A stretch of DNA of 24,442 nucleotides from positions 1-24,442 of the IMG/VR virus record IMGVR_UViG_3300034418_008649; one strand, 5' to 3'. The notes beneath the pieces were generated by a model that saw only the letters and a program-made list of their open reading frames with translations, made no database searches and was not told where the DNA came from. The position numbers and the translations under genes are program-made. Below, piece by piece: positions 10,678 to 24,442 of the stretch (its first letter is position 1; the number at the start of each line of letters is the position of its first letter). The DNA comes from a virus.

Positions 10678-11859
10678 ATGGCTAATATTGCAATATACGA
10701 TGGTTCACCTACATTTACTCCTGGAACTGGTGTATTAACACCTTTTGGTTTCTATGATTGGGATGTAGAATTTCAAGCTGATATTCTTAAAGTAACTAAA
10801 TTTTGTGCTGTACGTTTAGGATACCCTATTGAAAACGTAGAATTATCCTCAGGCTCATTTTTTACAGCATTTGAAGAAGCCATCACAGTATATGGTAATG
10901 AATTATATGCTTATAAACAAAGAGAAGATTACTTATCTTTAGAAGGTTCAAATCATAATTATGCTGATTCTACAACTGATTTAGATAACCAAATTGTAAC
11001 TCCTAATTTAGAAAACGTAATTAGATTATCACAACAATACGGAACAGAAGCCGGTGTTGGGGGTAATGTTAACTGGTATAGTGGTTCAATAGACTTAATC
11101 CCAGGAGTTCAAGATTATGATTTAAACGATTGGGCAGCAACACAAGGCATTACAGGAAGTGATTTAGAAATTAGAAAAATTTTCTACCAACCAATCCCAG
11201 CTTCATATCAATTTTATGGCGGTATGGGATACGAAGGTACAGCTATTGCTATGTTTGGAGATGCTGCTGGTTATACTGCTTACGGTGCTAACAGTTTCTT
11301 AATGATGCCTTTAAGCTATGATTTACAAGCTATTCAACAAGTTGAAATGTATAGAGATATTTTATTTTCTAACTATACATTTGAATTAATTAATAATAGA
11401 CTTAGAGTTTTCCCAATCCCTAACAATGATGATGATGCTTATAGAAGCACTATCTGGTTCCAATATGATCTAAAATCAGAAAAATTAGCTAATTCTGTAG
11501 TAGGTGGAGAAGGTAAAGTAAACAACGTCTCCCAAATGCCATACAGAAACCCAGTCTACTCAAGAATTAATTCTGTAGGTAGAAGTTGGATTTTTGAATA
11601 TACATTAGCTTTATGTAAAGAAATGTTAGGCTATATCCGTGGAAAATATGGTACAGTACCCATCCCAGGAGCAGAAGTAACCTTAAACCAATCAGATCTA
11701 TTAGCCTCATCCAATGCTGATAAAGAAGCTTTAATTGCTAAATTAAGAGAATATTTTGATCAAACTTCACGTCAATCTTTATTAGAAAGAAGAGCAGCAG
11801 AATCTGATGCTCGTAGAAGTGAATTAGATAATGTACCAATGACTATATTTGTAGGGTAA
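10678..11859 (+). CDS. gp13: Neck protein, gp13-like (head completion)
   Basis: Probable head-completion/neck protein that seals the portal after packaging, together with gp14. At 393 residues it is longer than T4 gp13 (about 309). Recognisable features are the N-terminal DWDVEFQADILKVTKFCAVR with FTAFEEAITVYGNEL (about 22-80), a beta-rich centre, and the C-terminal block FEYTLALCKEMLGYIRGKYG followed by VPIPGAEVTLN (about 305-335), which I associate with gp13-type proteins of T4-like phages. The C-terminus is a charged helix (about 345-385). The gp14-like and gp15-like genes follow directly, as in T4's 13-14-15 order. Its stop shares a base with the next start (TAATG). Identification rests on these blocks and on gene order. 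Confidence 0.68.
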   Translation: MANIAIYDGSPTFTPGTGVLTPFGFYDWDVEFQADILKVTKFCAVRLGYPIENVELSSGSFFTAFEEAITVYGNELYAYKQREDYLSLEGSNHNYADSTTDLDNQIVTPNLENVIRLSQQYGTEAGVGGNVNWYSGSIDLIPGVQDYDLNDWAATQGITGSDLEIRKIFYQPIPASYQFYGGMGYEGTAIAMFGDAAGYTAYGANSFLMMPLSYDLQAIQQVEMYRDILFSNYTFELINNRLRVFPIPNNDDDAYRSTIWFQYDLKSEKLANSVVGGEGKVNNVSQMPYRNPVYSRINSVGRSWIFEYTLALCKEMLGYIRGKYGTVPIPGAEVTLNQSDLLASSNADKEALIAKLREYFDQTSRQSLLERRAAESDARRSELDNVPMTIFVG

Positions 11860-12437
11860 TGGCATTATACGGAGAGGCAAGAGATATAAGTTTTTTTAGA
11901 CACATTAACCGTGAGTTAATGGCTAATATTATCTCACAACAATGTGTTTACTATAAATTTGACTTAGGCGAAACTAAAGTTAACATCTATGGTGAAGCAT
12001 CAGGTGGAAAATACTATCATCCTCCTATACTATTAAATGCTTTAATCGAACGTAGAGATCAAGAATATCCCGAAAGTGATTTAGGTGTTAATTTTACTTG
12101 GGGTATTACCTTTAAATTTTTAAGAGACGATTTATTAGATCGTAACAAAGATTTTAACAAAGATTGGCAATTTGCTAACACATATGGAGCTAATTTAGTC
12201 CCTGAAGTAGGAGATATTATCATGTATGACCAAGGTTATTACGAAGTAGATAGTACAAACGCTAATCAATACTTTGTAGGTAAAAACCCAGCTTACGACT
12301 ATAAAGATGATAATGGTAACAACGTATTAAATGAAACTGATTTAGCTAATTTTGGTTCAAGTATTTCAATTATTTGTAATACACATTATGTACCAGCTGA
12401 TAAATTAGCATTATCACCATTTAAAGAAAGAATGTAA
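11859..12437 (+). CDS. gp14: Neck protein, gp14-like
   Basis: Probable second neck protein, joining the sealed head to the tail. It has 192 residues against about 256 in T4. The C-terminal half contains VPEVGDIIMYDQGYYEVD followed by QYFVGKNPAYDY (about 110-147), which parallels T4 gp14's EGDLIYFPMDNSLFEI and its LGKN segment. The N-terminus has ARDISFFRHINREL and a VNIYGEASGGKYYHP block. It overlaps both neighbours by one base through TAATG, indicating coupled translation of the 13-14-15 set. No processing site or membrane segment is seen. Confidence 0.72.
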   Translation: MALYGEARDISFFRHINRELMANIISQQCVYYKFDLGETKVNIYGEASGGKYYHPPILLNALIERRDQEYPESDLGVNFTWGITFKFLRDDLLDRNKDFNKDWQFANTYGANLVPEVGDIIMYDQGYYEVDSTNANQYFVGKNPAYDYKDDNGNNVLNETDLANFGSSISIICNTHYVPADKLALSPFKERM

Positions 12438-13432
12438 TGGCTAAACAAGGAAGAAAACCAGTACCAAAATCCCAAAAGGAAATTAGTGTAGGGCTTCAAA
12501 CTGCCTACGATCCTACTGTAGGTAACCCAAACGACCCTGACCAATATTCCCAACACCCTGACATTAATCAGGCTGGTATTCCTTTTAACCGTTCTGAAAA
12601 ATTATCTCAAAAAGGAGATACATACAAACAATTTACAGTAGGTTTAGAAGATATAGATGAATCTATATTTTATTATTTTAATAATGTAATTAAACCTTTC
12701 GTTATTCAAAACGACGAAAGGATTCCTGTACCTATTATATATGGTAATCCTGAAAGATGGAATAACTTTCAAAAAGACGGTTTTTACCGTGATAAGAACG
12801 GAGCCATTATGATGCCTATTATCGTAATTAAACGAGATGGTATTACTAAAAATAGAAGTATTGCCAATAAATTAGATTCAAATTTTCCTAATTTATATAC
12901 TTCTTGGCAAAAGCAATATAACCCTAAGAATTTCTACTCTAATTTTAATGTATTAAATAATAGAATACAAACAAAACAATTTGTTGCTAACGTTGTTCCT
13001 GATTATGTAACCCTTCAATATAGTGTTATTATTCAAACTTATTATATGGATCAACTAAATAAAATAGTTGAAGCCATTAACTACGCATCAGATTCATATT
13101 GGGGAGACCCAGAACGCTTTAAATTTAAAGCTATGATCGATGGATTTACAAATGCTAATCAGCTAGCACAAGGACAAGAAAGAGTAGTTAGGAGTAACTT
13201 TAACATCAATATGTATGGGTATATAATACCGGATGTAATACAAAAGGATTTAAGTTCTATTAAAAAATATAATGAGAAATCAAAAATTATATTTTCAATG
13301 GAAACTACTTCAAATCCTGAAATATTCAATCCTAATCCTCAAATAGCCCCAGCCGTTGACGGTTCTAGTGCTGTTAGAGACAGATTAAGTGAAAATGTTA
13401 ATACTCGTAAAAGAATAAACGCAGATGAGTAA
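12437..13432 (+). CDS. gp15: Tail terminator/completion protein, gp15-like
   Basis: Probable tail-completion protein that caps the tail and sheath and binds the neck. It has 331 residues against about 272 in T4. Parallels with gp15 are the pattern RIPVPIIYGNPERW (about 94-107), MPIIVIKRDGI (about 120-130) and the stretch LQYSVIIQTYYMDQLNKIVE with AINYASDSYWGDP (about 194-226). In T4 this last region reads as a strand, then a paired-motif helix and a FQPHF-like segment. The N-terminal 45 residues and the C-terminal 45 are low in structure and rich in Pro/Asn, so likely extended arms. It starts on the TAATG of the previous gene and overlaps the next by eight bases. Assignment is from pattern and gene order, so moderate. 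Confidence 0.65.
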   Translation: MAKQGRKPVPKSQKEISVGLQTAYDPTVGNPNDPDQYSQHPDINQAGIPFNRSEKLSQKGDTYKQFTVGLEDIDESIFYYFNNVIKPFVIQNDERIPVPIIYGNPERWNNFQKDGFYRDKNGAIMMPIIVIKRDGITKNRSIANKLDSNFPNLYTSWQKQYNPKNFYSNFNVLNNRIQTKQFVANVVPDYVTLQYSVIIQTYYMDQLNKIVEAINYASDSYWGDPERFKFKAMIDGFTNANQLAQGQERVVRSNFNINMYGYIIPDVIQKDLSSIKKYNEKSKIIFSMETTSNPEIFNPNPQIAPAVDGSSAVRDRLSENVNTRKRINADE

Positions 13433-15413: not shown

Positions 15414-18400
15414 ATGGCCGAATATAATCCGGAACAACCCCCTTTATCGCTAGTAGGTACCATATCAGGTAATGCTCAAGGTAAAGATAAATATGGGATA
15501 AACGATGAAACTGGTTTAGGACCTAATGGTGCTGACAAGTATATATCATATGACGTTGTAATATCATCAATAACTTCTCAAGTTGTAGGTGATGCTAGTG
15601 TTAGAGACTCTTTAGGTCTTCTAGTTGGAGGTCAATACACAGGTATAGATGTTAAAGTAGGAGACTGGATGTCTACTACAGATGGTGCTCGTATATTCCA
15701 AATCACAGAAATTACAGAAAAATCTGATACCTACATTTCATGTTCTATTGAAGATGTAGGTATGGCTGTAGCTAAAACTCGTGGTGATAGGGTTAACTCT
15801 GTAGGAGATGGTACTGGTGTATTTATATTTGAGGTTAGTGATGATTCTCAACCTACATGGGCTATAAACAAATTAGATTCATTCTCTAATACTACAGCAG
15901 CTAATGCTATTCAAACTTATTTTAACGTATACGAACCATTCCAAAGATTTACTTTCTACCCAGATATTACAGGTAGTATAGAAATTGGAGATTTAGTAAC
16001 AATTACAGGTTCAGTATCAGGTACTCCTGTAACCCCTTACAGATTAGTCCAGGCCCAAGATGGAGATACAGTAGTAGGTGTTGTTTCTGACATTTACGGT
16101 GGTAATAATATTAATGTACGTCCTGTAAATAAAATTATAACTAATTTTTCAACTCCTGAAAATTTAGTAACGGGTGAAATTGGTTCAACTTGGTATTTAA
16201 GTGGTAGTGGTGCTTATACTACAAGTAGTGATTTTGGTGATCCTAAATTCTTCCAATTAAGCCTCCCAGTAGTAGCTTCAGTTACAGGTAGTGTAGACGG
16301 AACTACATTTGATCAAGGTTCTTATAACCTTATAATCAACAATATTGAAGTAATCCCTCAAAGTTCAGGAGTATTAAATCTAGGACAGATTACAAGTTCT
16401 ATTAATACTTATACTTCTACAACTTATGTAACAGCAGGTATTAATGAACAAGGTGGTGGATTTGCCTCAGCTCAAACTTTAGGATCAGCTGGTTCTGGAG
16501 GTAGTGCAGGCACATTAGCATATACAGGTGTAGATAGTGAAACCTTTATAGTATTAGATACTTCAGGTGGAACTGGTTCATACCCTTCAGCTCCAGGCAA
16601 ATTTGCAATTACTGCAAGTGGGGTTGATTTTGAAGTTCACCCTACAACAGCAGATTTTATAGCCGCTAGTGTCTATCCTGCAGCATCTGCTACTCAAATT
16701 AAAGATGATATTAATGCCGCTGCTACTGCTGCCGGAGCTGGTGTAGTAGCAACCGTTGATACTTCATCAATACCCCACATTCTTACTATCACTAATACCG
16801 GCGCTGGTACATTAGAAATAAATAATATAGCTAATGATGCTGCGGGCACAGCAACAGTAGGTAATGGTTCAGGTACAGGTTTACCTACAGGACAATTTAG
16901 TGCTCCTGCTCTAGAACAATATTTAACTTTAGGGAGAACAGATGGTGGTGATATCCTACTTCAAGGTAGTTGGGTAACATCAGCCAGTGGTTCAGGACTA
17001 TGGAGTGTATCAGGTACCCCACCTTATCTCTTAATGATTGAAGCCGCTGGTGGTGGTAGCGATTTAGAAATAGTATATACAGGATCAGTAGTAGAAACTC
17101 AAACTACTTCAATCCACTTTACAGGTTCAGGAGTTACAGTTGAAGCATCAGGTTCAAACGGTGTTTTAGTAACTATAGGAGATACAAGTACATCTGGTAC
17201 TTCAGGTACAGCTGCTGCTTCAGGTACATCAGGTACAGATGGTAGCTCAGGTACTTCAGGTAATGGTACTGATGGTACTTCAGGTACTACAGGTACAGCA
17301 GGTTCTTCAGGTACAGCTGGCACTAGCGATACTTCAGGTACTTCAGGAGGTACTTCAGGTACTGCCGGTACAAATGGTAGTGACGGTACAACAGGTACTG
17401 CAGGAAATTCAGGTACCTCAGGTACAAGTGACACCTCAGGTACAACTGGTTCAGCCGGTACTTCAGGTACTTCGGGTGATGCTGATAGTGCCACTTCAGG
17501 TACAAATGGAGTAAGTGGTACTTCAGGTACTTCAGCTGATAGTTCAACATCCGGTACTGCTGGTTCATCAGGAACAAGTGGTTCAGACGGTACTGCGGGT
17601 ACAGTAGGTACTTCAGGCTCATCAGGTACAAGTGATACTTCAGGTACAGCAGGTACAGCAGGCAGTTCAGGTACAACAGGAGATGATGGCAGTTCAGGTA
17701 CTGCAGGAAATTCAGGTACTTCAGGTACAAGTGATACCTCAGGTACAACAGGTTCAGCCGGTACTTCTGGTACATCAGGCGACAATGAAAGCTCCACTTC
17801 AGGTACAAACGGAGAATCAGGTACTTCAGGTACTTCAGGTGATTCTAGCACTTCAGGAACCGCCGGTTCTTCAGGTACTTCAGGTACAACTGGTGATGAC
17901 GGCACAAGTGGTACAGCTGGTGATTCAGGAACCTCAGGTACAAGCGAAACTTCAGGTACAGCAGGTAATGATGGAACTTCAGGTACAACTGGTGATGACG
18001 GCACAAGTGGTACAGCAGGTGAATCCGGTACTTCAGGTACAAGTGATACCTCAGGTACAGCAGGTTCTGCAGGTACTTCTGGTACATCAGGCGACAACGA
18101 AAGCGCTACTTCAGGTACAAACGGAGAATCAGGTACTTCAGGTACTTCAGGTGATAGTTCAACATCAGGAACAGCTGGTTCATCTGGTACTTCAGGTACA
18201 ACAGGTGAAGATGGAACCTCAGGTACAGCTGGTGATTCAGGAACCTCAGGTACAAGCGAAACTTCAGGTACAGCAGGTAATGATGGAACTTCAGGTACAA
18301 CAGGAGACGATGGTTCTTCAGGCACAGCAGGAGAATCAGGAACATCTGGTACATCCGATACAAGTGGTACAACAGGTACAGCAGGTAGTTCAGGTACCTC

Positions 18401-21400
18401 AGGTGATAACGAAAGTGCTACCTCAGGTACCCAAGGTAATTCAGGTACTTCAGGTACTTCAGGTGATTCTAGCACTTCAGGTACAGCAGGCTCTTCAGGT
18501 ACTTCGGGTACAACAGGTGAAGATGGCACTTCAGGTACAGCTGGCGATTCAGGAACTGCAGGTACAAGCGAAACTTCAGGTACTTCTGGAGCAGATGGAT
18601 CTTCAGGTACAACAGGAGACGATGGTACTTCTGGTACAGTAGGAGCATCAGGTACTTCAGGTACAAGTGACACCTCTGGTACAGCAGGTAGTGCTGGTAC
18701 TTCAGGTACCTCAGGAGACAACGAAAGCTCTACTTCAGGTACAAACGGTATAAGTGGTACTTCAGGTACTTCAGGTGATAGCTCAACTTCAGGAACTGCA
18801 GGATCTTCAGGAACCTCAGGCGATAACGAAACTTCAGGTACAGCTGGTACAGGAGGCTCATCAGGTACAGCAGGAGACTCAGGTACATCAGGAACTTCAG
18901 ATACTTCAGGTACTTCTGGAGCAGATGGATCTTCAGGTACAACAGGAGACGATGGTACTTCTGGTACAGCAGGAAATTCAGGTACAGCTGGTACTTCAGA
19001 TACAAGTGGTACAACAGGTTCAGCCGGTACCTCAGGTACTTCAGGAGATAACGCATCAGCAACTTCAGGAACAGCAGGTGAAAGTGGTACTTCTGGAACA
19101 TCAGGCGAAAGTTCAACTTCAGGTACAGCAGGTAGCTCTGGTACTTCAGGTGATAACGAAACTTCAGGTACATCAGGTACAGGAGGTTCAAGTGGTACAG
19201 CAGGTGAAAGTGGTACAGCAGGTACAAGTGATACTTCAGGTACTGCAGGTTCATCAGGCTCTTCAGGTACAACAGGAAATGATGGTACTTCAGGTACAGC
19301 TGGTGAATCAGGAACCGCAGGTACATCTGATACCTCAGGTACAACAGGTTCAGCCGGTACCTCAGGTACTTCAGGCGATAACGATAGCGCAACATCTGGT
19401 ACAAACGGTATAAGTGGTACTTCAGGTACTTCAGGTGATTCAAGTACCTCAGGAACAGCTGGTTCTTCAGGTACATCAGGTGATGATGAAACTTCAGGTA
19501 CAGCAGGTACAGGTGGTTCTTCAGGTACAGCTGGGGGATCAGGAACTAGTGGTACAAGCGATACTTCAGGTACAACTGGTAACGATGGAACTAGTGGTAC
19601 AAATGGAAATAATGGTACATCTGGAACAGCTGGTGAATCAGGAACCTCAGGTACAAGTGACACCTCAGGTACAACAGGTTCAGCTGGTACAAGTGGTACT
19701 TCAGGCGATAACGAAAGCTCAACATCAGGTACAGCCGGTGTAAGTGGTACTTCAGGTACCTCAGCAGATAGTTCAACTTCCGGAACAGCTGGTTCTTCAG
19801 GTACAACGGGTTCAGATGGTACAGCTGGTACAGTTGGTACAGCAGGCTCATCCGGTACAAGTGATACTTCAGGTACAGCTGGTACATCAGGTTCTTCAGG
19901 TACAACTGGAGAAGATGGTACCTCAGGTACTATAGGTACCAGTGGCTCGAGCGGTACTTCAGATACTTCAGGTACTACAGGTTCAGCTGGTACCTCAGGT
20001 ACAAGTGGTGATAACGAAAGTGCTACTTCAGGTACTGCAGGCGTAAGCGGAACTTCAGGTACTTCAGCTGATTCAAGTACTTCAGGAACAGCCGGTTCTT
20101 CAGGTACTTCAGGTTCAGATGGAACTTCAGGTACGGTAGGTACAGCTGGTTCAAGTGGTACAAGTGATACCTCGGGTACTTCAGGTACCGCAGGTTCATC
20201 AGGTACAACTGGTGACGATGGTACTTCAGGCTCAGTAGGTACCAGTGGTTCAAGCGGTACTTCAGATACAAGTGGTACAACAGGTTCAGCTGGTACAAGT
20301 GGTACTTCAGGCGATAACGAAAGTGCTACTTCAGGTACTGCAGGCGTAAGCGGAACTTCAGGTACTTCAGCTGATTCAAGTACTTCAGGAACTGCAGGTT
20401 CAAGCGGTACTACAGGTTCAGATGGCACAAGTGGTACAGTTGGTACAGCAGGTTCATCAGGAACTTCAGATACAAGTGGCACATCAGGTACAAACGGTAG
20501 TTCAGGTACTTCAGGTGATGATGGTACTTCAGGTACAGTAGGTACAGCTGGTTCTTCAGGTACAAGTGATACTTCAGGTACAACAGGTTCTGCCGGTACT
20601 TCAGGTACTTCAGGCGATAATGAATCAGCAACTTCAGGTACAAATGGTGTAAGTGGAACTTCAGGAACATCAGGTGAATCAAGTACTTCAGGAACCGCCG
20701 GTTCTTCAGGAACAAGTGGTTCAGATGGTACTTCAGGAACTGTAGGTACAGCTGGTAGTTCAGGTACATCCGATACAAGTGGTACTTCAGGTACAGCAGG
20801 TTCATCTGGTACTACAGGAGATGATGGTACATCAGGTTCAGTAGGTACTTCAGGTTCTAGTGGTACTTCAGATACTTCAGGAACAACAGGTAGTGCGGGT
20901 ACATCAGGTACAAGTGGAGACAATGCTTCGGCAACTTCAGGTACAGCAGGTGTAAGCGGTACTTCAGGTACATCAGCAGACTCAAGTACATCAGGTACAG
21001 CTGGTAGCTCAGGTACTTCTGGATCGGACGGAACTTCAGGTACAGTTGGTACTGCTGGTAGTTCGGGTACAAGTGATACTTCAGGTACCTCAGGCACAGC
21101 CGGTTCATCAGGTACTTCAGGTTCGGACGGAACTTCAGGCTCAGTAGGTACTTCAGGTTCATCAGGCACTTCGGATACTTCAGGTACAACTGGTTCAGCA
21201 GGTACTTCTGGTACAAGTGGTGATAACGAAAGTTCAACTTCAGGTACAGCCGGTGTAAGCGGTACTTCAGGTACTTCAGGTGATAGCTCAACTTCAGGAA
21301 CTGCAGGTTCTTCAGGTACTTCCGGTTCCGACGGAACTTCAGGCTCAGTAGGTACTTCGGGTTCATCAGGAACAAGTGATACTTCAGGAACTTCAGGTTC

Positions 21401-24400
21401 AGCTGGTACTTCTGGTTCAACAGGTGACAGTAAAACTTCCGGTACAGTAGGTACTTCAGGTTCAAGTGGTACAAGTGATACTTCAGGTACTACAGGTAGT
21501 GCAGGTACATCAGGTACTTCAGGAGACAATGCTTCAGCAACTTCTGGTACAGCAGGTGTTTCTGGTACTTCAGGTACTTCAGCAGATAGTTCAACTTCAG
21601 GAACTGCCGGTAGTTCAGGTACTTCAGGTTCGGACGGAACTTCAGGTTCTGCAGGAACAGCTGGTAGCTCAGGTACATCCGATACTTCAGGAACTTCAGG
21701 TTCAGCAGGTACTTCGGGTACAACGGGTGACAGTCAAACCTCAGGTACTGTAGGTACAGCAGGTAGCTCAGGAACAAGTGACACCTCAGGTACAACTGGT
21801 TCAGCCGGTACATCAGGTACTTCAGGTGATAACGCTTCAGCAACTTCCGGTACAGCAGGTGTTTCAGGAACTTCTGGTAGTTCCGCAGATAGCTCAACTT
21901 CAGGAACAGCCGGTTCTTCAGGTACTTCAGGTTCAGATGGAACTTCAGGTACAGTTGGTACAGCAGGTTCTTCAGGAACAAGTGATACTTCAGGAACTTC
22001 AGGTTCAGCTGGTACTTCTGGTTCAACAGGTGACAGTAAAACTTCCGGTACAGTAGGTACTTCAGGTTCATCAGGTACAAGTGATACTTCAGGTACAACA
22101 GGTAGTGCTGGTACTTCAGGTACTTCAGGTGATGTATCAAGTGCAACTTCAGGTACAGCAGGTACTTCAGGAAGCTCAGGTACTTCAGGCGGATCAAGCA
22201 CTTCAGGAACTGCAGGTTCTTCAGGTACAACTGGTTCAGATGGTACAAGCGGTACAGTTGGTACAGCTGGTTCAAGTGGTACAAGTGATACATCAGGTAC
22301 CTCAGGTACAGCTGGCTCTTCAGGTACTTCAGGTTCGGATGGTACATCAGGCTCAGTAGGTACTTCAGGTAGTTCAGGTACATCTGATACTTCAGGTACT
22401 ACAGGTAGTGCCGGTACTTCAGGTACTTCAGGCGATAACGAAAGCTCAACATCAGGTACAGCCGGTGTTTCTGGTACTTCTGGTACTTCAGGTGATAGCT
22501 CAACTTCAGGAACTGCAGGTTCTTCAGGAACTTCAGGTTCGGACGGAACTTCAGGTACAGCAGGAACTGCAGGTTCAAGTGGTACTTCCGATACAAGTGG
22601 AACTTCAGGTTCAGCTGGTACTTCTGGTTCAACAGGTGACAGTAAAACTTCCGGTACAGTAGGTACAGCAGGATCATCAGGTACTTCAGATACAAGTGGT
22701 ACAACTGGTAGTGCTGGTACTTCAGGTACTTCAGGCGATAATGAAAGCGCAACATCAGGTACAGTAGGTGTAAGCGGTACTTCAGGTACATCAGGCGAAT
22801 CAAGCACTTCAGGAACTGCAGGTTCTTCAGGAACAAGTGGTTCAGATGGCACTTCAGGTACAGCTGGTACAGCAGGTAGTTCAGGTACTTCTGATACAAG
22901 TGGAACTTCAGGTTCAGCCGGTACTTCAGGTTCAACTGGAGATAGTAAAACAAGTGGTACAGCAGGTACAGCGGGTTCAAGCGGTACTTCAGATACTTCA
23001 GGTACTACGGGTTCAGCCGGTACTTCAGGTACAAGTGGTGATGTAGCTTCTGCAACATCAGGTACAGCCGGTACTTCAGGAAGCTCGGGTACTTCAGGTG
23101 GATCTTCAACCTCTGGTACAGCAGGTTCAAGCGGTACAACAGGTTCAGATGGAACGTCAGGAACTGCGGGTACAGCTGGTTCATCAGGTACAAGTGATAC
23201 TTCAGGAACTTCAGGTTCAGCTGGTACTTCAGGTACAACTGGAGACAGTAAAACAAGTGGTACAGTAGGTACAGCCGGTTCATCAGGTACTTCAGATACA
23301 AGTGGTACAACAGGTTCAGCAGGTACTTCAGGTACTTCAGGTGATGTAAATTCAGCAACTTCTGGTACAGCAGGTACAAGCGGTAGTTCAGGTACTTCAG
23401 GTGGATCAAGCACTTCAGGAACAGCAGGTTCTTCAGGAACAAGCGGTTCAAATGGTACTTCAGGTTCTTCAGGTACTGCAGGTTCATCTGGTACCTCAGG
23501 TTCAAGTGATACTTCAGGTACATCCGGTTCAAGTGGTACATCAGGTTCAAATGGTACATCTGGTTCTTCAGGTACTGCAGGTTCTGCAGGTACTTCAGGT
23601 ACAAGTGATACTTCAGGCACTACAGGATCACACGGTACATCTGGTAGCTCAGGTACTTCAGGTTCTTCGGGTACAGCAGGTTCTGCAGGTACTGGTGGTA
23701 CTTCGGGTGTTAGTGGAAACGCTAATAGTTCAGGTACTTCATCAACCTCAGGTACAGCAGGTTCTTCAGGTACAACAGGTACAGCTGGTACTTCAGGAGT
23801 AGCAGGAGCTAGTAATTCATCAGGTACTTCAACTTCAAGTGGTACAGCAGGTACTACAGGTACATCAGGTACATCTGGTTCAGGTGATGCTACATCAGGT
23901 ACAGGAGGATCTGGTACTTCGGGTACAGCAGGTACATCAGGTTCTTCAGATACTTCAGGAACTTCAGGTTCAGCAGGTACTACTGGTACAGCAGGTACAT
24001 CAGGTGGTAGTGGATCATCAGGTACTACTGGATCTTCAGGTACATCAGGTTCAAGCGGTACTTCAGGAAGTTCAGGTACAAGTGGTTCATCTGGTACTTC
24101 AGGTGCAGCAACAATACTTAATAATACAAATAATTATGTATTAACTGCTACTGGAACCTCAGGATTAATTCAAGGCGAATCTAATTTCCAATTTGATGGT
24201 AATACATTAACTCTTGAAAAAGCTAAATTACAATCAAATCAGGTAACGTTAACCGCTAACTCAACTACTACAATCTTAGATAGTATTAATAATATTAACG
24301 TATCTTTAGGTGTTACTTTAGAATACATTATTATGAATATTGATGGTAGTAATATGAGAGGTGGTACATTTATGGCCATTACTAATAATACAAGTACTAA

Positions 24401-24442
24401 AGTAACCGAAACCATGACTACTGATTTTGGAGATACTTCAGT
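15414..24442 (+). CDS. Giant collagen-like fibre protein (3' partial, >3009 aa)
   Basis: One reading frame stays open from the ATG at 15414 to the right edge. I read the N-terminal part and the last 320 bases codon by codon, and the repeat anchors stay in frame throughout. Residues 1 to about 591 are non-repetitive, beta-rich and low in Cys, with segments such as KVGDWMSTTDGARIFQITEI (about 83-102) and YEPFQRFTFYPDITGSIEIG. This is probably the virion-attachment part, although no family was recognised. Residues about 592-2897 are Gly-X-Y repeats (TSG, TAG, SSG, TTG, DDG) containing a higher-order array. From about 2898 a new domain starts (LNNTNNYVLTATGT, then SNFQFDGNTLTLEKAKL), resembling the start of many phage fibre C-terminal regions, and runs off the window. 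A long virion fibre is the likeliest role. The repeat has almost no Pro, so whether it folds as a collagen triple helix, a polyglycine-II-like bundle or something else is open. Thr/Ser at X and Y would permit O-glycosylation. Confidence 0.88.
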   Translation, partial: MAEYNPEQPPLSLVGTISGNAQGKDKYGINDETGLGPNGADKYISYDVVISSITSQVVGDASVRDSLGLLVGGQYTGIDVKVGDWMSTTDGARIFQITEITEKSDTYISCSIEDVGMAVAKTRGDRVNSVGDGTGVFIFEVSDDSQPTWAINKLDSFSNTTAANAIQTYFNVYEPFQRFTFYPDITGSIEIGDLVTITGSVSGTPVTPYRLVQAQDGDTVVGVVSDIYGGNNINVRPVNKIITNFSTPENLVTGEIGSTWYLSGSGAYTTSSDFGDPKFFQLSLPVVASVTGSVDGTTFDQGSYNLIINNIEVIPQSSGVLNLGQITSSINTYTSTTYVTAGINEQGGGFASAQTLGSAGSGGSAGTLAYTGVDSETFIVLDTSGGTGSYPSAPGKFAITASGVDFEVHPTTADFIAASVYPAASATQIKDDINAAATAAGAGVVATVDTSSIPHILTITNTGAGTLEINNIANDAAGTATVGNGSGTGLPTGQFSAPALEQYLTLGRTDGGDILLQGSWVTSASGSGLWSVSGTPPYLLMIEAAGGGSDLEIVYTGSVVETQTTSIHFTGSGVTVEASGSNGVLVTIGDTSTSGTSGTAAASGTSGTDGSSGTSGNGTDGTSGTTGTAGSSGTAGTSDTSGTSGGTSGTAGTNGSDGTTGTAGNSGTSGTSDTSGTTGSAGTSGTSGDADSATSGTNGVSGTSGTSADSSTSGTAGSSGTSGSDGTAGTVGTSGSSGTSDTSGTAGTAGSSGTTGDDGSSGTAGNSGTSGTSDTSGTTGSAGTSGTSGDNESSTSGTNGESGTSGTSGDSSTSGTAGSSGTSGTTGDDGTSGTAGDSGTSGTSETSGTAGNDGTSGTTGDDGTSGTAGESGTSGTSDTSGTAGSAGTSGTSGDNESATSGTNGESGTSGTSGDSSTSGTAGSSGTSGTTGEDGTSGTAGDSGTSGTSETSGTAGNDGTSGTTGDDGSSGTAGESGTSGTSDTSGTTGTAGSSGTSGDNESATSGTQGNSGTSGTSGDSSTSGTAGSSGTSGTTGEDGTSGTAGDSGTAGTSETSGTSGADGSSGTTGDDGTSGTVGASGTSGTSDTSGTAGSAGTSGTSGDNESSTSGTNGISGTSGTSGDSSTSGTAGSSGTSGDNETSGTAGTGGSSGTAGDSGTSGTSDTSGTSGADGSSGTTGDDGTSGTAGNSGTAGTSDTSGTTGSAGTSGTSGDNASATSGTAGESGTSGTSGESSTSGTAGSSGTSGDNETSGTSGTGGSSGTAGESGTAGTSDTSGTAGSSGSSGTTGNDGTSGTAGESGTAGTSDTSGTTGSAGTSGTSGDNDSATSGTNGISGTSGTSGDSSTSGTAGSSGTSGDDETSGTAGTGGSSGTAGGSGTSGTSDTSGTTGNDGTSGTNGNNGTSGTAGESGTSGTSDTSGTTGSAGTSGTSGDNESSTSGTAGVSGTSGTSADSSTSGTAGSSGTTGSDGTAGTVGTAGSSGTSDTSGTAGTSGSSGTTGEDGTSGTIGTSGSSGTSDTSGTTGSAGTSGTSGDNESATSGTAGVSGTSGTSADSSTSGTAGSSGTSGSDGTSGTVGTAGSSGTSDTSGTSGTAGSSGTTGDDGTSGSVGTSGSSGTSDTSGTTGSAGTSGTSGDNESATSGTAGVSGTSGTSADSSTSGTAGSSGTTGSDGTSGTVGTAGSSGTSDTSGTSGTNGSSGTSGDDGTSGTVGTAGSSGTSDTSGTTGSAGTSGTSGDNESATSGTNGVSGTSGTSGESSTSGTAGSSGTSGSDGTSGTVGTAGSSGTSDTSGTSGTAGSSGTTGDDGTSGSVGTSGSSGTSDTSGTTGSAGTSGTSGDNASATSGTAGVSGTSGTSADSSTSGTAGSSGTSGSDGTSGTVGTAGSSGTSDTSGTSGTAGSSGTSGSDGTSGSVGTSGSSGTSDTSGTTGSAGTSGTSGDNESSTSGTAGVSGTSGTSGDSSTSGTAGSSGTSGSDGTSGSVGTSGSSGTSDTSGTSGSAGTSGSTGDSKTSGTVGTSGSSGTSDTSGTTGSAGTSGTSGDNASATSGTAGVSGTSGTSADSSTSGTAGSSGTSGSDGTSGSAGTAGSSGTSDTSGTSGSAGTSGTTGDSQTSGTVGTAGSSGTSDTSGTTGSAGTSGTSGDNASATSGTAGVSGTSGSSADSSTSGTAGSSGTSGSDGTSGTVGTAGSSGTSDTSGTSGSAGTSGSTGDSKTSGTVGTSGSSGTSDTSGTTGSAGTSGTSGDVSSATSGTAGTSGSSGTSGGSSTSGTAGSSGTTGSDGTSGTVGTAGSSGTSDTSGTSGTAGSSGTSGSDGTSGSVGTSGSSGTSDTSGTTGSAGTSGTSGDNESSTSGTAGVSGTSGTSGDSSTSGTAGSSGTSGSDGTSGTAGTAGSSGTSDTSGTSGSAGTSGSTGDSKTSGTVGTAGSSGTSDTSGTTGSAGTSGTSGDNESATSGTVGVSGTSGTSGESSTSGTAGSSGTSGSDGTSGTAGTAGSSGTSDTSGTSGSAGTSGSTGDSKTSGTAGTAGSSGTSDTSGTTGSAGTSGTSGDVASATSGTAGTSGSSGTSGGSSTSGTAGSSGTTGSDGTSGTAGTAGSSGTSDTSGTSGSAGTSGTTGDSKTSGTVGTAGSSGTSDTSGTTGSAGTSGTSGDVNSATSGTAGTSGSSGTSGGSSTSGTAGSSGTSGSNGTSGSSGTAGSSGTSGSSDTSGTSGSSGTSGSNGTSGSSGTAGSAGTSGTSDTSGTTGSHGTSGSSGTSGSSGTAGSAGTGGTSGVSGNANSSGTSSTSGTAGSSGTTGTAGTSGVAGASNSSGTSTSSGTAGTTGTSGTSGSGDATSGTGGSGTSGTAGTSGSSDTSGTSGSAGTTGTAGTSGGSGSSGTTGSSGTSGSSGTSGSSGTSGSSGTSGAATILNNTNNYVLTATGTSGLIQGESNFQFDGNTLTLEKAKLQSNQVTLTANSTTTILDSINNINVSLGVTLEYIIMNIDGSNMRGGTFMAITNNTSTKVTETMTTDFGDTS
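17187..24104 (+). repeat. Gly-X-Y coding repeat of the giant gene (about 2306 codons)
   Basis: The region is a continuous run of Gly-X-Y-type triplets, dominated by Gly-Thr-Ser, Gly-Thr-Ala, Gly-Ser-Ser and Gly-Thr-Thr with scattered Asp, Asn, Val, Glu and Lys. Gly is mostly GGT, but Thr uses ACT, ACA and ACC and Ser uses all six codons, so the DNA is far less repetitive than the protein. The ends (17187-17477 and 23646-24104) do not follow the 101-codon super-unit. Confidence 0.93.
17478..23645 (+). repeat. Higher-order array of 20 units, period 303/312/330 bp
   Basis: Anchors encoding Asp-(Asn/Val/Ala)-x-x-(Ala/Ser)-Thr-Ser-Gly start at 17478, 17781, 18093, 18405, 18717, 19047, 19377, 19707, 20010, 20313, 20616, 20919, 21222, 21525, 21828, 22131, 22434, 22737, 23040 and 23343. 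Spacings are 303, three of 312, three of 330, then twelve of exactly 303. The extra lengths, 9 and 27 bases, are one and three Gly-X-Y triplets. The unit from 20313, counted codon by codon, has 101 residues, with one break of Gly phase at the anchor and Asp at a Gly position in ADSS and in two TSDTSG segments 33 residues apart. Later anchors often read DVSSA, DVASA or DVNSA instead of DNESA. Confidence 0.92.

What the first reader, a model, noticed from the sequence alone, without database searches (positions are those of the whole stretch)
15414..24442. Giant phage fibre built on a Gly-Thr-Ser collagen-like repeat of about 2306 residues
The sequence shows a single frame of more than 3009 codons, most of it (Gly-X-Y)n with Thr/Ser/Ala in place of Pro. 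Phage collagen-like fibres are known, but they are usually tens to a few hundred residues long. At the collagen rise of about 0.29 nm per residue this stalk would reach roughly 660 nm if fully extended, several times a phage head; other folds would be shorter. It may be a previously undescribed class of very long phage fibre, possibly glycosylated on Thr/Ser.
Basis: partly seen in the sequence, partly recalled or inferred. Interest (0 to 1): 0.85.

Follow-up and report, generated by a model that had tools for sequence, protein, structure and literature searches.

The report
Giant collagen-like fibre of T4-like phage
A T4-like virus of bacteria carries a real, intact gene for one of the longest collagen-like fibres seen in phages (about 3,000 amino acids, over 2,300 of them Gly-X-Y repeats with no proline). 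Close relatives carry, beside such fibres, enzymes that look able to hydroxylate and glycosylate collagen-like fibre proteins.

Summary
One frame, 15414-24440, is open for 3009 codons: a unique N-terminal domain (aa 1-568), a Gly-X-Y array (aa 569-2911, 2343 residues, 29% Ser, 28% Gly, 24% Thr, no Pro) and a non-repetitive C-terminal domain cut by the contig end. A relative with a similar C-terminal domain shows that only about 36 residues are missing. It is not an assembly artefact: the longest exact repeat is 99 bp, synonymous changes dominate between repeat units, and independent contigs hold complete genes of the kind (2662, 2710 and 2277 aa). It is a modular virion fibre: two unrelated N-terminal anchors, arrays of 0 to 2409 residues, and exchangeable tips occur at one locus between the neck genes and the tail sheath gene. 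The window's anchor is homologous to PA5oct gp181, annotated as a virion protein found by mass spectrometry. Collagen-like by sequence is shown; a triple helix is not. Long GTS/GSS arrays are common in environmental phages, so this is an extreme variant of a known kind. The most surprising result lies in close relatives: the same fibre cluster encodes a GT4-GT25-lysyl-hydroxylase protein and a TibC-like serine heptosyltransferase. The window ends before that region.

The parts
15414..17117 (+). N-terminal domain of the giant fibre (aa 1-568), the conserved virion anchor
   Evidence: 61-68% identical in L007, L008, L009, L015; hhalign probability 98.1 over 455 columns to PA5oct gp181, annotated as a structural protein with ESI-MS/MS support; no Pfam or PHROG match above cut-off
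17118..24146 (+). Gly-X-Y array (aa 569-2911, 2343 residues), the shaft
   Evidence: PF01391 Collagen E=3e-185 in 42 stretches; X mostly Thr/Ser/Asp, Y mostly Ser/Ala, no Pro
17430..23597 (+). Super-repeat region inside the array: about 20 units of 101/104/110 residues, each with DTS, ESATS-type and STS breaks
   Evidence: the same units in L008 and L009; longest exact DNA repeat 99 bp
24147..24440 (+). Start of the C-terminal domain (aa 2912-3009), cut by the contig end; probable tip
   Evidence: 72% identical to the C-terminus of the complete 2710-aa protein in L203 and 42% to that of L008, both of which end in a stop codon
13772..15280 (+). Second, shorter collagen-like fibre (502 aa, GTG start, array of about 330 residues) with its own C-terminal domain
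   Evidence: PF01391 E=1.3e-12; PHROG 5073 and 6320 tail fibre; a like gene at the same place in all close relatives that extend past it
12437..13432 (+). Conserved 331-aa protein just upstream of the fibre cluster, used as landmark for the comparison of 64 loci
   Evidence: 76-90% identical in close relatives; related loci found with it
10678..11859 (+). Neck / head-tail adaptor protein (gp13-like)
   Evidence: phrog_211 head-tail adaptor Ad2, E=3.4e-11; same place as the putative head completion protein of phage immuto
7734..9392 (+). T4-type major capsid protein gp23
   Evidence: PF07068 E=2e-74; 53-58% identical to Flavobacterium phage immuto
1132..2967 (+). T4-type portal protein gp20
   Evidence: PF07230 E=1.8e-69

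Best explanation
The gene encodes a very long virion fibre of a T4-like myovirus, most likely infecting a Bacteroidota host. The N-terminal domain docks on the virion, the collagen-like (Gly-Thr/Ser-Ser/Ala)n shaft projects the C-terminal tip, and the tip binds the host surface. Shaft length is a freely tuned module: relatives keep the same anchor with shafts from none to 2409 residues, or keep giant shafts on a different anchor, with exchanged tips. Shown: intact selected reading frame, modular conservation, placement in a fibre cluster between neck and tail-sheath genes, homology of the anchor to an annotated virion protein. Inferred: trimeric assembly, triple-helical (or at least extended) shaft, up to about 670 nm, receptor binding by the tip. 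Inferred from close relatives only: Ser O-heptosylation of the Ser/Thr-rich shaft by a TibC-like enzyme of the same cluster.
For: Open frame and array. pN/pS 0.35 between units, with many synonymous changes. Longest exact repeat 99 bp and 3.4% of 55-mers repeated, so the array is resolvable by short-read assembly. Complete genes of the kind with stop codons in three other contigs: 2662 aa (L008, array 1946), 2710 aa (L203, array 2248), 2277 aa (L205, array 1763); L009 has 2409 residues of array. Same anchor without any array in L015 (828 aa). A second, unrelated anchor family carries giant arrays at the same locus. Anchor homologous to PA5oct gp181, which lies next to fibre genes in PA5oct; a weaker match in Salicola phage SCTP-2 also lies next to a long fibre gene. 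The next clade out has no fibre genes there and goes straight to the sheath gene. In G005 the cluster is bounded by the neck-side genes and the sheath and tube genes. T4-type head genes nearest to Flavobacterium phage immuto.
Against: No direct evidence of expression, of presence in a virion or of trimerisation for this protein. Zero Pro and five Lys in 2343 residues, and Gly replaced by Asp/Ser/Ala at conserved places, argue against a uniformly stable triple helix. Structure predictions were poor (pLDDT 39 for the anchor, 50 for the tip), so neither fold nor receptor-binding role was shown.
Confidence: 0.78

Rival explanations
1. It is a virion fibre, but the shaft is not a collagen triple helix: it is a flexible, brush-like or polyglycine-II/other repeat structure, possibly heavily O-glycosylated, and much shorter than 670 nm.
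For: No Pro, nearly no charge except Asp/Glu, 97 separate G-X-Y runs with a mean of 6.6 triplets, conserved Gly substitutions and one register shift per 101-residue unit. Ghosh 2012 (PMC3368898) suggests that the stability of phage collagen domains comes from high Pro in X and charged residues, features missing or nearly so here.
Against: Strict triplet register with different residue preferences at X and Y (Thr 353 in X, 48 in Y; Ser 138 in X, 293 in Y), unit lengths that differ by multiples of three residues, PF01391 matches. A cold habitat, if that is where it lives, would need less thermal stability.
Confidence: 0.4
2. The array is an assembly or sequencing artefact, or a decaying repeat with no product.
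For: Several other contigs break inside such arrays (L007, L142, L143); the antisense strand also shows long open frames.
Against: No exact repeat above 99 bp; complete genes of the kind in independent contigs; pN/pS about 0.3-0.4 in three contigs; 2343 codons without a stop against at most 208 in shuffles.
Confidence: 0.03
3. It is not a tail fibre for host attachment but a neck whisker or head-associated decoration fibre that holds the virion to surfaces, particles or mucilage.
For: The genes lie beside the neck genes, as wac (fibritin) does beside gene 13 in T4 (my own knowledge).
Against: The same interval holds other fibre genes and ends at the sheath gene in relatives; PA5oct gp181 lies next to tail-fibre genes.
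Confidence: 0.2

Closest known systems
EPcl collagen-like phage fibre proteins of E. coli O157:H7 prophages (Ghosh et al. 2012, PMC3368898)
   Same: Phage fibre with N-terminal attachment domain, Gly-X-Y shaft and C-terminal domain; shaft lengths vary in multiples of three; triple helix shown there
   Different: Collagen domain of 111 residues in the protein studied there against 2343 here; Pro-rich and charged there, no Pro here; no sequence relation between the terminal domains was tested
Pseudomonas phage PA5oct gp181 (Arenbergviridae), structural protein with ESI-MS/MS note in the record
   Same: N-terminal domain homologous over 455 columns
   Different: gp181 is 657 aa, and PA5oct has no collagen array
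Flavobacterium phage immuto (Immutovirus), nearest cultured phage
   Same: T4-type head and neck genes in the same order, 36-61% identical for most genes
   Different: No match to PF01391 in the whole genome and no homologue of the anchor
GTSG/GSSG-array fibres of environmental phages (e.g. the L040/L072 family, frames of about 1931-2060 residues)
   Same: Complete fibre genes with arrays of 1666-1795 residues, in contigs that carry the same landmark gene
   Different: Only 34-37% identical at the landmark gene; anchor not homologous by tblastn; a different start of array and different tip; no 101-residue super-repeat motif
Human LH3/PLOD3, COLGALT1 and mimivirus L230/R699 collagen-modifying enzymes (for the enzymes of the relatives)
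   Same: LH domain with the Fe and 2-oxoglutarate residues plus GT25 domain in one protein, encoded beside collagen-like fibres
   Different: Encoded by phages; extra GT4 domain in the window's clade; activity untested; not seen in the window itself

Membership tests
Phage collagen-like fibre proteins (Gly-X-Y shaft) | Gly at every third residue over a long stretch | tested here: met
   82% of 2343 residues in runs of at least 3 perfect triplets; z = 38 for Gly i,i+3; PF01391 above its cut-off
Phage collagen-like fibre proteins (Gly-X-Y shaft) | Non-collagen domains at both ends, encoded among virion or fibre genes | tested here: met
Collagen triple helix | Pro (or Hyp) at X/Y, or other stabilising residues such as Lys/Arg | tested here: not met
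   0 Pro, 5 Lys and 0 Arg in the array
Collagen triple helix | Trimeric triple-helical conformation | not testable with these tools
   needs CD, ultracentrifugation or EM
T4-like myovirus (gp23/gp20 lineage) | gp20 portal, S77 prohead protease, gp23 capsid in T4 order | tested here: met
   PF07230, PF03420, PF07068
Bacterial autotransporter heptosyltransferase (TibC) family, for the 754-aa enzyme of the relatives | Catalytic Asp-110 and four iron-finger Cys (339, 342, 358, 370 in TibC; PMC4358343) | tested here: met
   phmmer E=1e-39; Asp482 and Cys705/708/724/736 with the same spacing, invariant in five sequences
Procollagen lysyl hydroxylase/galactosyltransferase, for the 786-aa enzyme of the relatives | HxD...H Fe ligands and Arg for 2-oxoglutarate (His667, Asp669, His719, Arg729 in LH3; PMC6082870), GT25 domain | tested here: met
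   E=1.4e-20 to LH3 and 1.6e-12 to procollagen galactosyltransferase 1; residues invariant in five sequences
Procollagen lysyl hydroxylase/galactosyltransferase, for the 786-aa enzyme of the relatives | Hydroxylation and glycosylation of Y-position Lys in Gly-X-Lys | not testable with these tools
   consistent only: in eight neighbouring arrays from these contigs and cultured phages Lys is in Y 188 times and in X 0 times

The most novel reading that the evidence does not exclude
The window's phage belongs to a lineage that builds and post-translationally matures its own giant fibres in the bacterial cytosol: a proline-free Ser/Thr collagen-like shaft of about 0.6 um hyper-O-heptosylated by a phage TibC-like enzyme, plus Pro/Lys collagen-like fibres whose Y-position lysines are hydroxylated and glycosylated by a phage procollagen-lysyl-hydroxylase/galactosyltransferase. 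That would be an animal-style (and mimivirus-style) collagen maturation pathway in bacterial viruses; cultured cyanophages S-PRM1, S-CAM9, S-8S55 and Roseobacter phage CRP-6 carry a related enzyme beside Gly-X-Lys fibre genes.
Probability: 0.4. Interest if true: 0.88.

Novelty: new variant of a known kind. Interest (0 to 1): 0.68.

Why it matters
It extends phage collagen-like fibres from the tens to hundreds of residues usual in the sample to over 2,300, in a proline-free sequence with a 101-residue super-repeat, and shows that shaft length is a module that changes from 0 to 2,400 residues on one anchor. This makes two questions testable: whether a triple helix can be built without proline in bacteria, and what a virion gains from reaching over half a micrometre. 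The cluster in close relatives suggests that phages themselves encode collagen hydroxylation and glycosylation, which would be a new use of an enzyme set known from animals and mimivirus, and a possible source of tools for recombinant collagen.

Tried and rejected
AlphaFold of the anchor (pLDDT 39) and of the tip (pLDDT 50) was too poor for fold claims. Foldseek with the tip model gave only weak hits to phage fibre proteins (best E 4e-5 in BFVD, none below 1e-3 in PDB) and is not used as evidence. No solved relative of anchor or tip by sequence. No relative of the anchor in the bacterial and archaeal genome collection. tblastn of the array against named phages found nothing, as the low-complexity filter would cause. 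The super-repeat motif was found only in L008 and L009. An artefact was considered and rejected. A Bacteroidota secretory O-glycosylation motif at the conserved D-T-S breaks was considered and dropped: xTS is the background of the array, so DTS adds no signal, and that pathway (own knowledge) acts on exported proteins. Literature searches found no report of phage lysyl hydroxylases or of GTSG phage arrays, but the held library is partial.

Full report
Observation. The window is a 24.4-kb virus record. The frame at 15414 is open for 3009 codons and leaves the contig. It divides into an N-terminal domain (aa 1-568), a Gly-X-Y array (aa 569-2911; 2343 residues; Ser 670, Gly 667, Thr 561, Asp 137, Pro 0, Arg 0, Lys 5) and the start of a non-repetitive C-terminal domain. 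(The script stopped with an error on a later protein after printing the results used here.) Gly spaced by three exceeds shuffles with z = 38, and the frame is stop-free ten times longer than the best of 100 dinucleotide shuffles. The array is a hierarchy: triplets, then about 20 units of 101, 104 or 110 residues, each with Gly replaced at fixed places (DTS, STS/ADSSTS) and one ESATS-type break that shifts the triplet register by two residues.

Not an artefact. The longest exact repeat in the array is 99 bp, and only 3.4% of 55-mers recur. Between equal-length units pS is 0.46 and pN 0.16; the pattern is alike in L008 and L009. Complete genes of the kind, ending in stop codons, exist in independent contigs: L008 (2662 aa, array 1946), L203/G005 (2710 aa, array 2248) and L205/G006 (2277 aa, array 1763); L009 carries 2409 residues of array. 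The C-terminus of the 2710-aa protein is 72% identical to the window's and continues for 36 residues past the point where the window stops, so the whole protein is about 3045 residues.

What phage. gp20, S77 protease, gp23 and PhoH are T4-type. The nearest cultured phage is Flavobacterium phage immuto, 36-61% identical for most head and neck genes in the same order. A Bacteroidota host is therefore likely but not shown. Immuto has no collagen array and no homologue of the anchor.

What the gene is. The N-terminal domain is 61-68% identical in four other contigs with long matches and is homologous to PA5oct gp181 over 455 columns (probability 98). That record annotates gp181 as a structural protein with ESI-MS/MS support, and its neighbour matches tail-fibre families. 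In L015 the same anchor occurs in an 828-aa protein with no array at all. In G005 and G006 a different anchor family (40% identical to each other; the G005 one shows no similarity to the window's) carries giant arrays at the same site. L009 has a different domain after its array. A survey by the landmark protein upstream gave 64 loci: close relatives that extend far enough have a roughly 500-600-aa collagen-like fibre followed by a second fibre, most with a giant array; the next clade (65% identity at the landmark) has no fibre genes there and passes directly to the tail sheath gene; more distant phages carry other, mostly non-collagen fibres or the sheath gene. This is a modular fibre locus.

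How unusual. Many are cut by contig or fetch limits, so these are lower bounds. Distant T4-like contigs (34-37% at the landmark gene) have complete genes with arrays of 1666-1795 residues. So this is an extreme, not a solitary, case. At 0.286 nm per residue the array would be about 670 nm if fully triple-helical and straight; this is an upper bound. The absence of Pro is notable: published bacterial collagens have Pro as the commonest X residue (PMC8968730), and the stability of the E. coli phage collagen has been put down to Pro and charged residues (PMC3368898). The positional preferences (Thr in X, Ser in Y) show that the triplet register matters, but a triple helix is unproven.

An unexpected neighbour in relatives. 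In G005 (landmark protein 88% identical to the window's) the interval between giant fibre and tail sheath holds further fibres, including Pro-rich collagen-like ones, then seven non-fibre genes. One, 786 aa, matches GT4, GT25 and a lysyl-hydroxylase domain: E=1.4e-20 to human LH3 and 1.6e-12 to procollagen galactosyltransferase 1. The residues equivalent to LH3 His667, Asp669, His719 and Arg729 are invariant in five sequences. The next gene is a 2OG-Fe(II) oxygenase (PF13640). A 754-aa protein joins a GT4 domain to a TibC-like domain (E=1e-39) with the catalytic Asp and all four iron-finger Cys at identical spacing. TibC heptosylates Ser in repetitive adhesins (PMC4358343), which fits a Ser-rich array as substrate, by inference. 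Seven contigs carry the LH gene; where enough of the upstream side is present it follows Pro-rich collagen-like fibre genes, and in all of them the sheath gene follows downstream.

The same enzyme in cultured phages. S-PRM1 gp162, S-CAM9 gp218, S-8S55 and CRP-6 gp58 carry a related protein, annotated as hypothetical protein or 2OG oxygenase; S-PRM1 gp162 has GT25, LH3-glycosyltransferase-like and LH parts. They lie beside fibre genes rich in Gly-X-Lys. In the eight arrays tallied from these contigs and phages Lys is in Y 188 times and in X never. The 8-kb fragment AG-345-L05 showed no array. The window is cut before this region, so these enzymes are predicted, not observed, for this phage.

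Verdict. A real, intact, very long modular collagen-like fibre: a new variant of a known kind. Virion fibre about 0.8; triple-helical shaft about 0.5; Ser glycosylation about 0.4-0.5. The reading that would be truly new is a phage-encoded collagen maturation pathway.

Noticed in passing
L204:1813-4170 (G005), homologues in L206, L208, L209, L210, L211, L212: 786-791-aa GT4-GT25-lysyl-hydroxylase protein next to Pro-rich collagen-like fibre genes and upstream of the tail sheath gene; catalytic residues of LH3 conserved.
   Followed up: yes
L204:6297-8561 (G005) and homologues: GT4 fused to a TibC-like heptosyltransferase domain with catalytic Asp and four iron-finger Cys, in the same fibre cluster.
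   Followed up: partly
L213:8639-10483 (S-PRM1 gp162), L215 (S-CAM9 gp218), L214 (CRP-6 gp58), L216 (S-8S55): Cultured phage proteins annotated as hypothetical or 2OG oxygenase look like complete procollagen lysyl hydroxylase plus glycosyltransferases, beside fibre genes rich in Gly-X-Lys.
   Followed up: partly
L204:4174-4785 (G005): 204-aa 2OG-Fe(II) oxygenase (PKHD / prolyl-4-hydroxylase-like); the neighbouring arrays have Pro almost only in X, so its substrate is unclear.
   Followed up: no
window 17099-21529, strand -: 1476-aa antisense open frame, a by-product of the repeat composition; similar ones in L008 (1863 aa) and L009 (2182 aa).
   Followed up: partly
L176, L180, L182, L185 downstream of the landmark gene: 1709-1830-aa non-collagen giant fibres (start such as MSKFVSELSGSLIF) occupy the same locus in other T4-like relatives.
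   Followed up: no
L155 and L156, about 50 bases after the landmark gene: A 358-aa protein starting MKVLFLAPHLSTGG, looking like a glycosyltransferase by eye, at the fibre insertion site in another clade.
   Followed up: no
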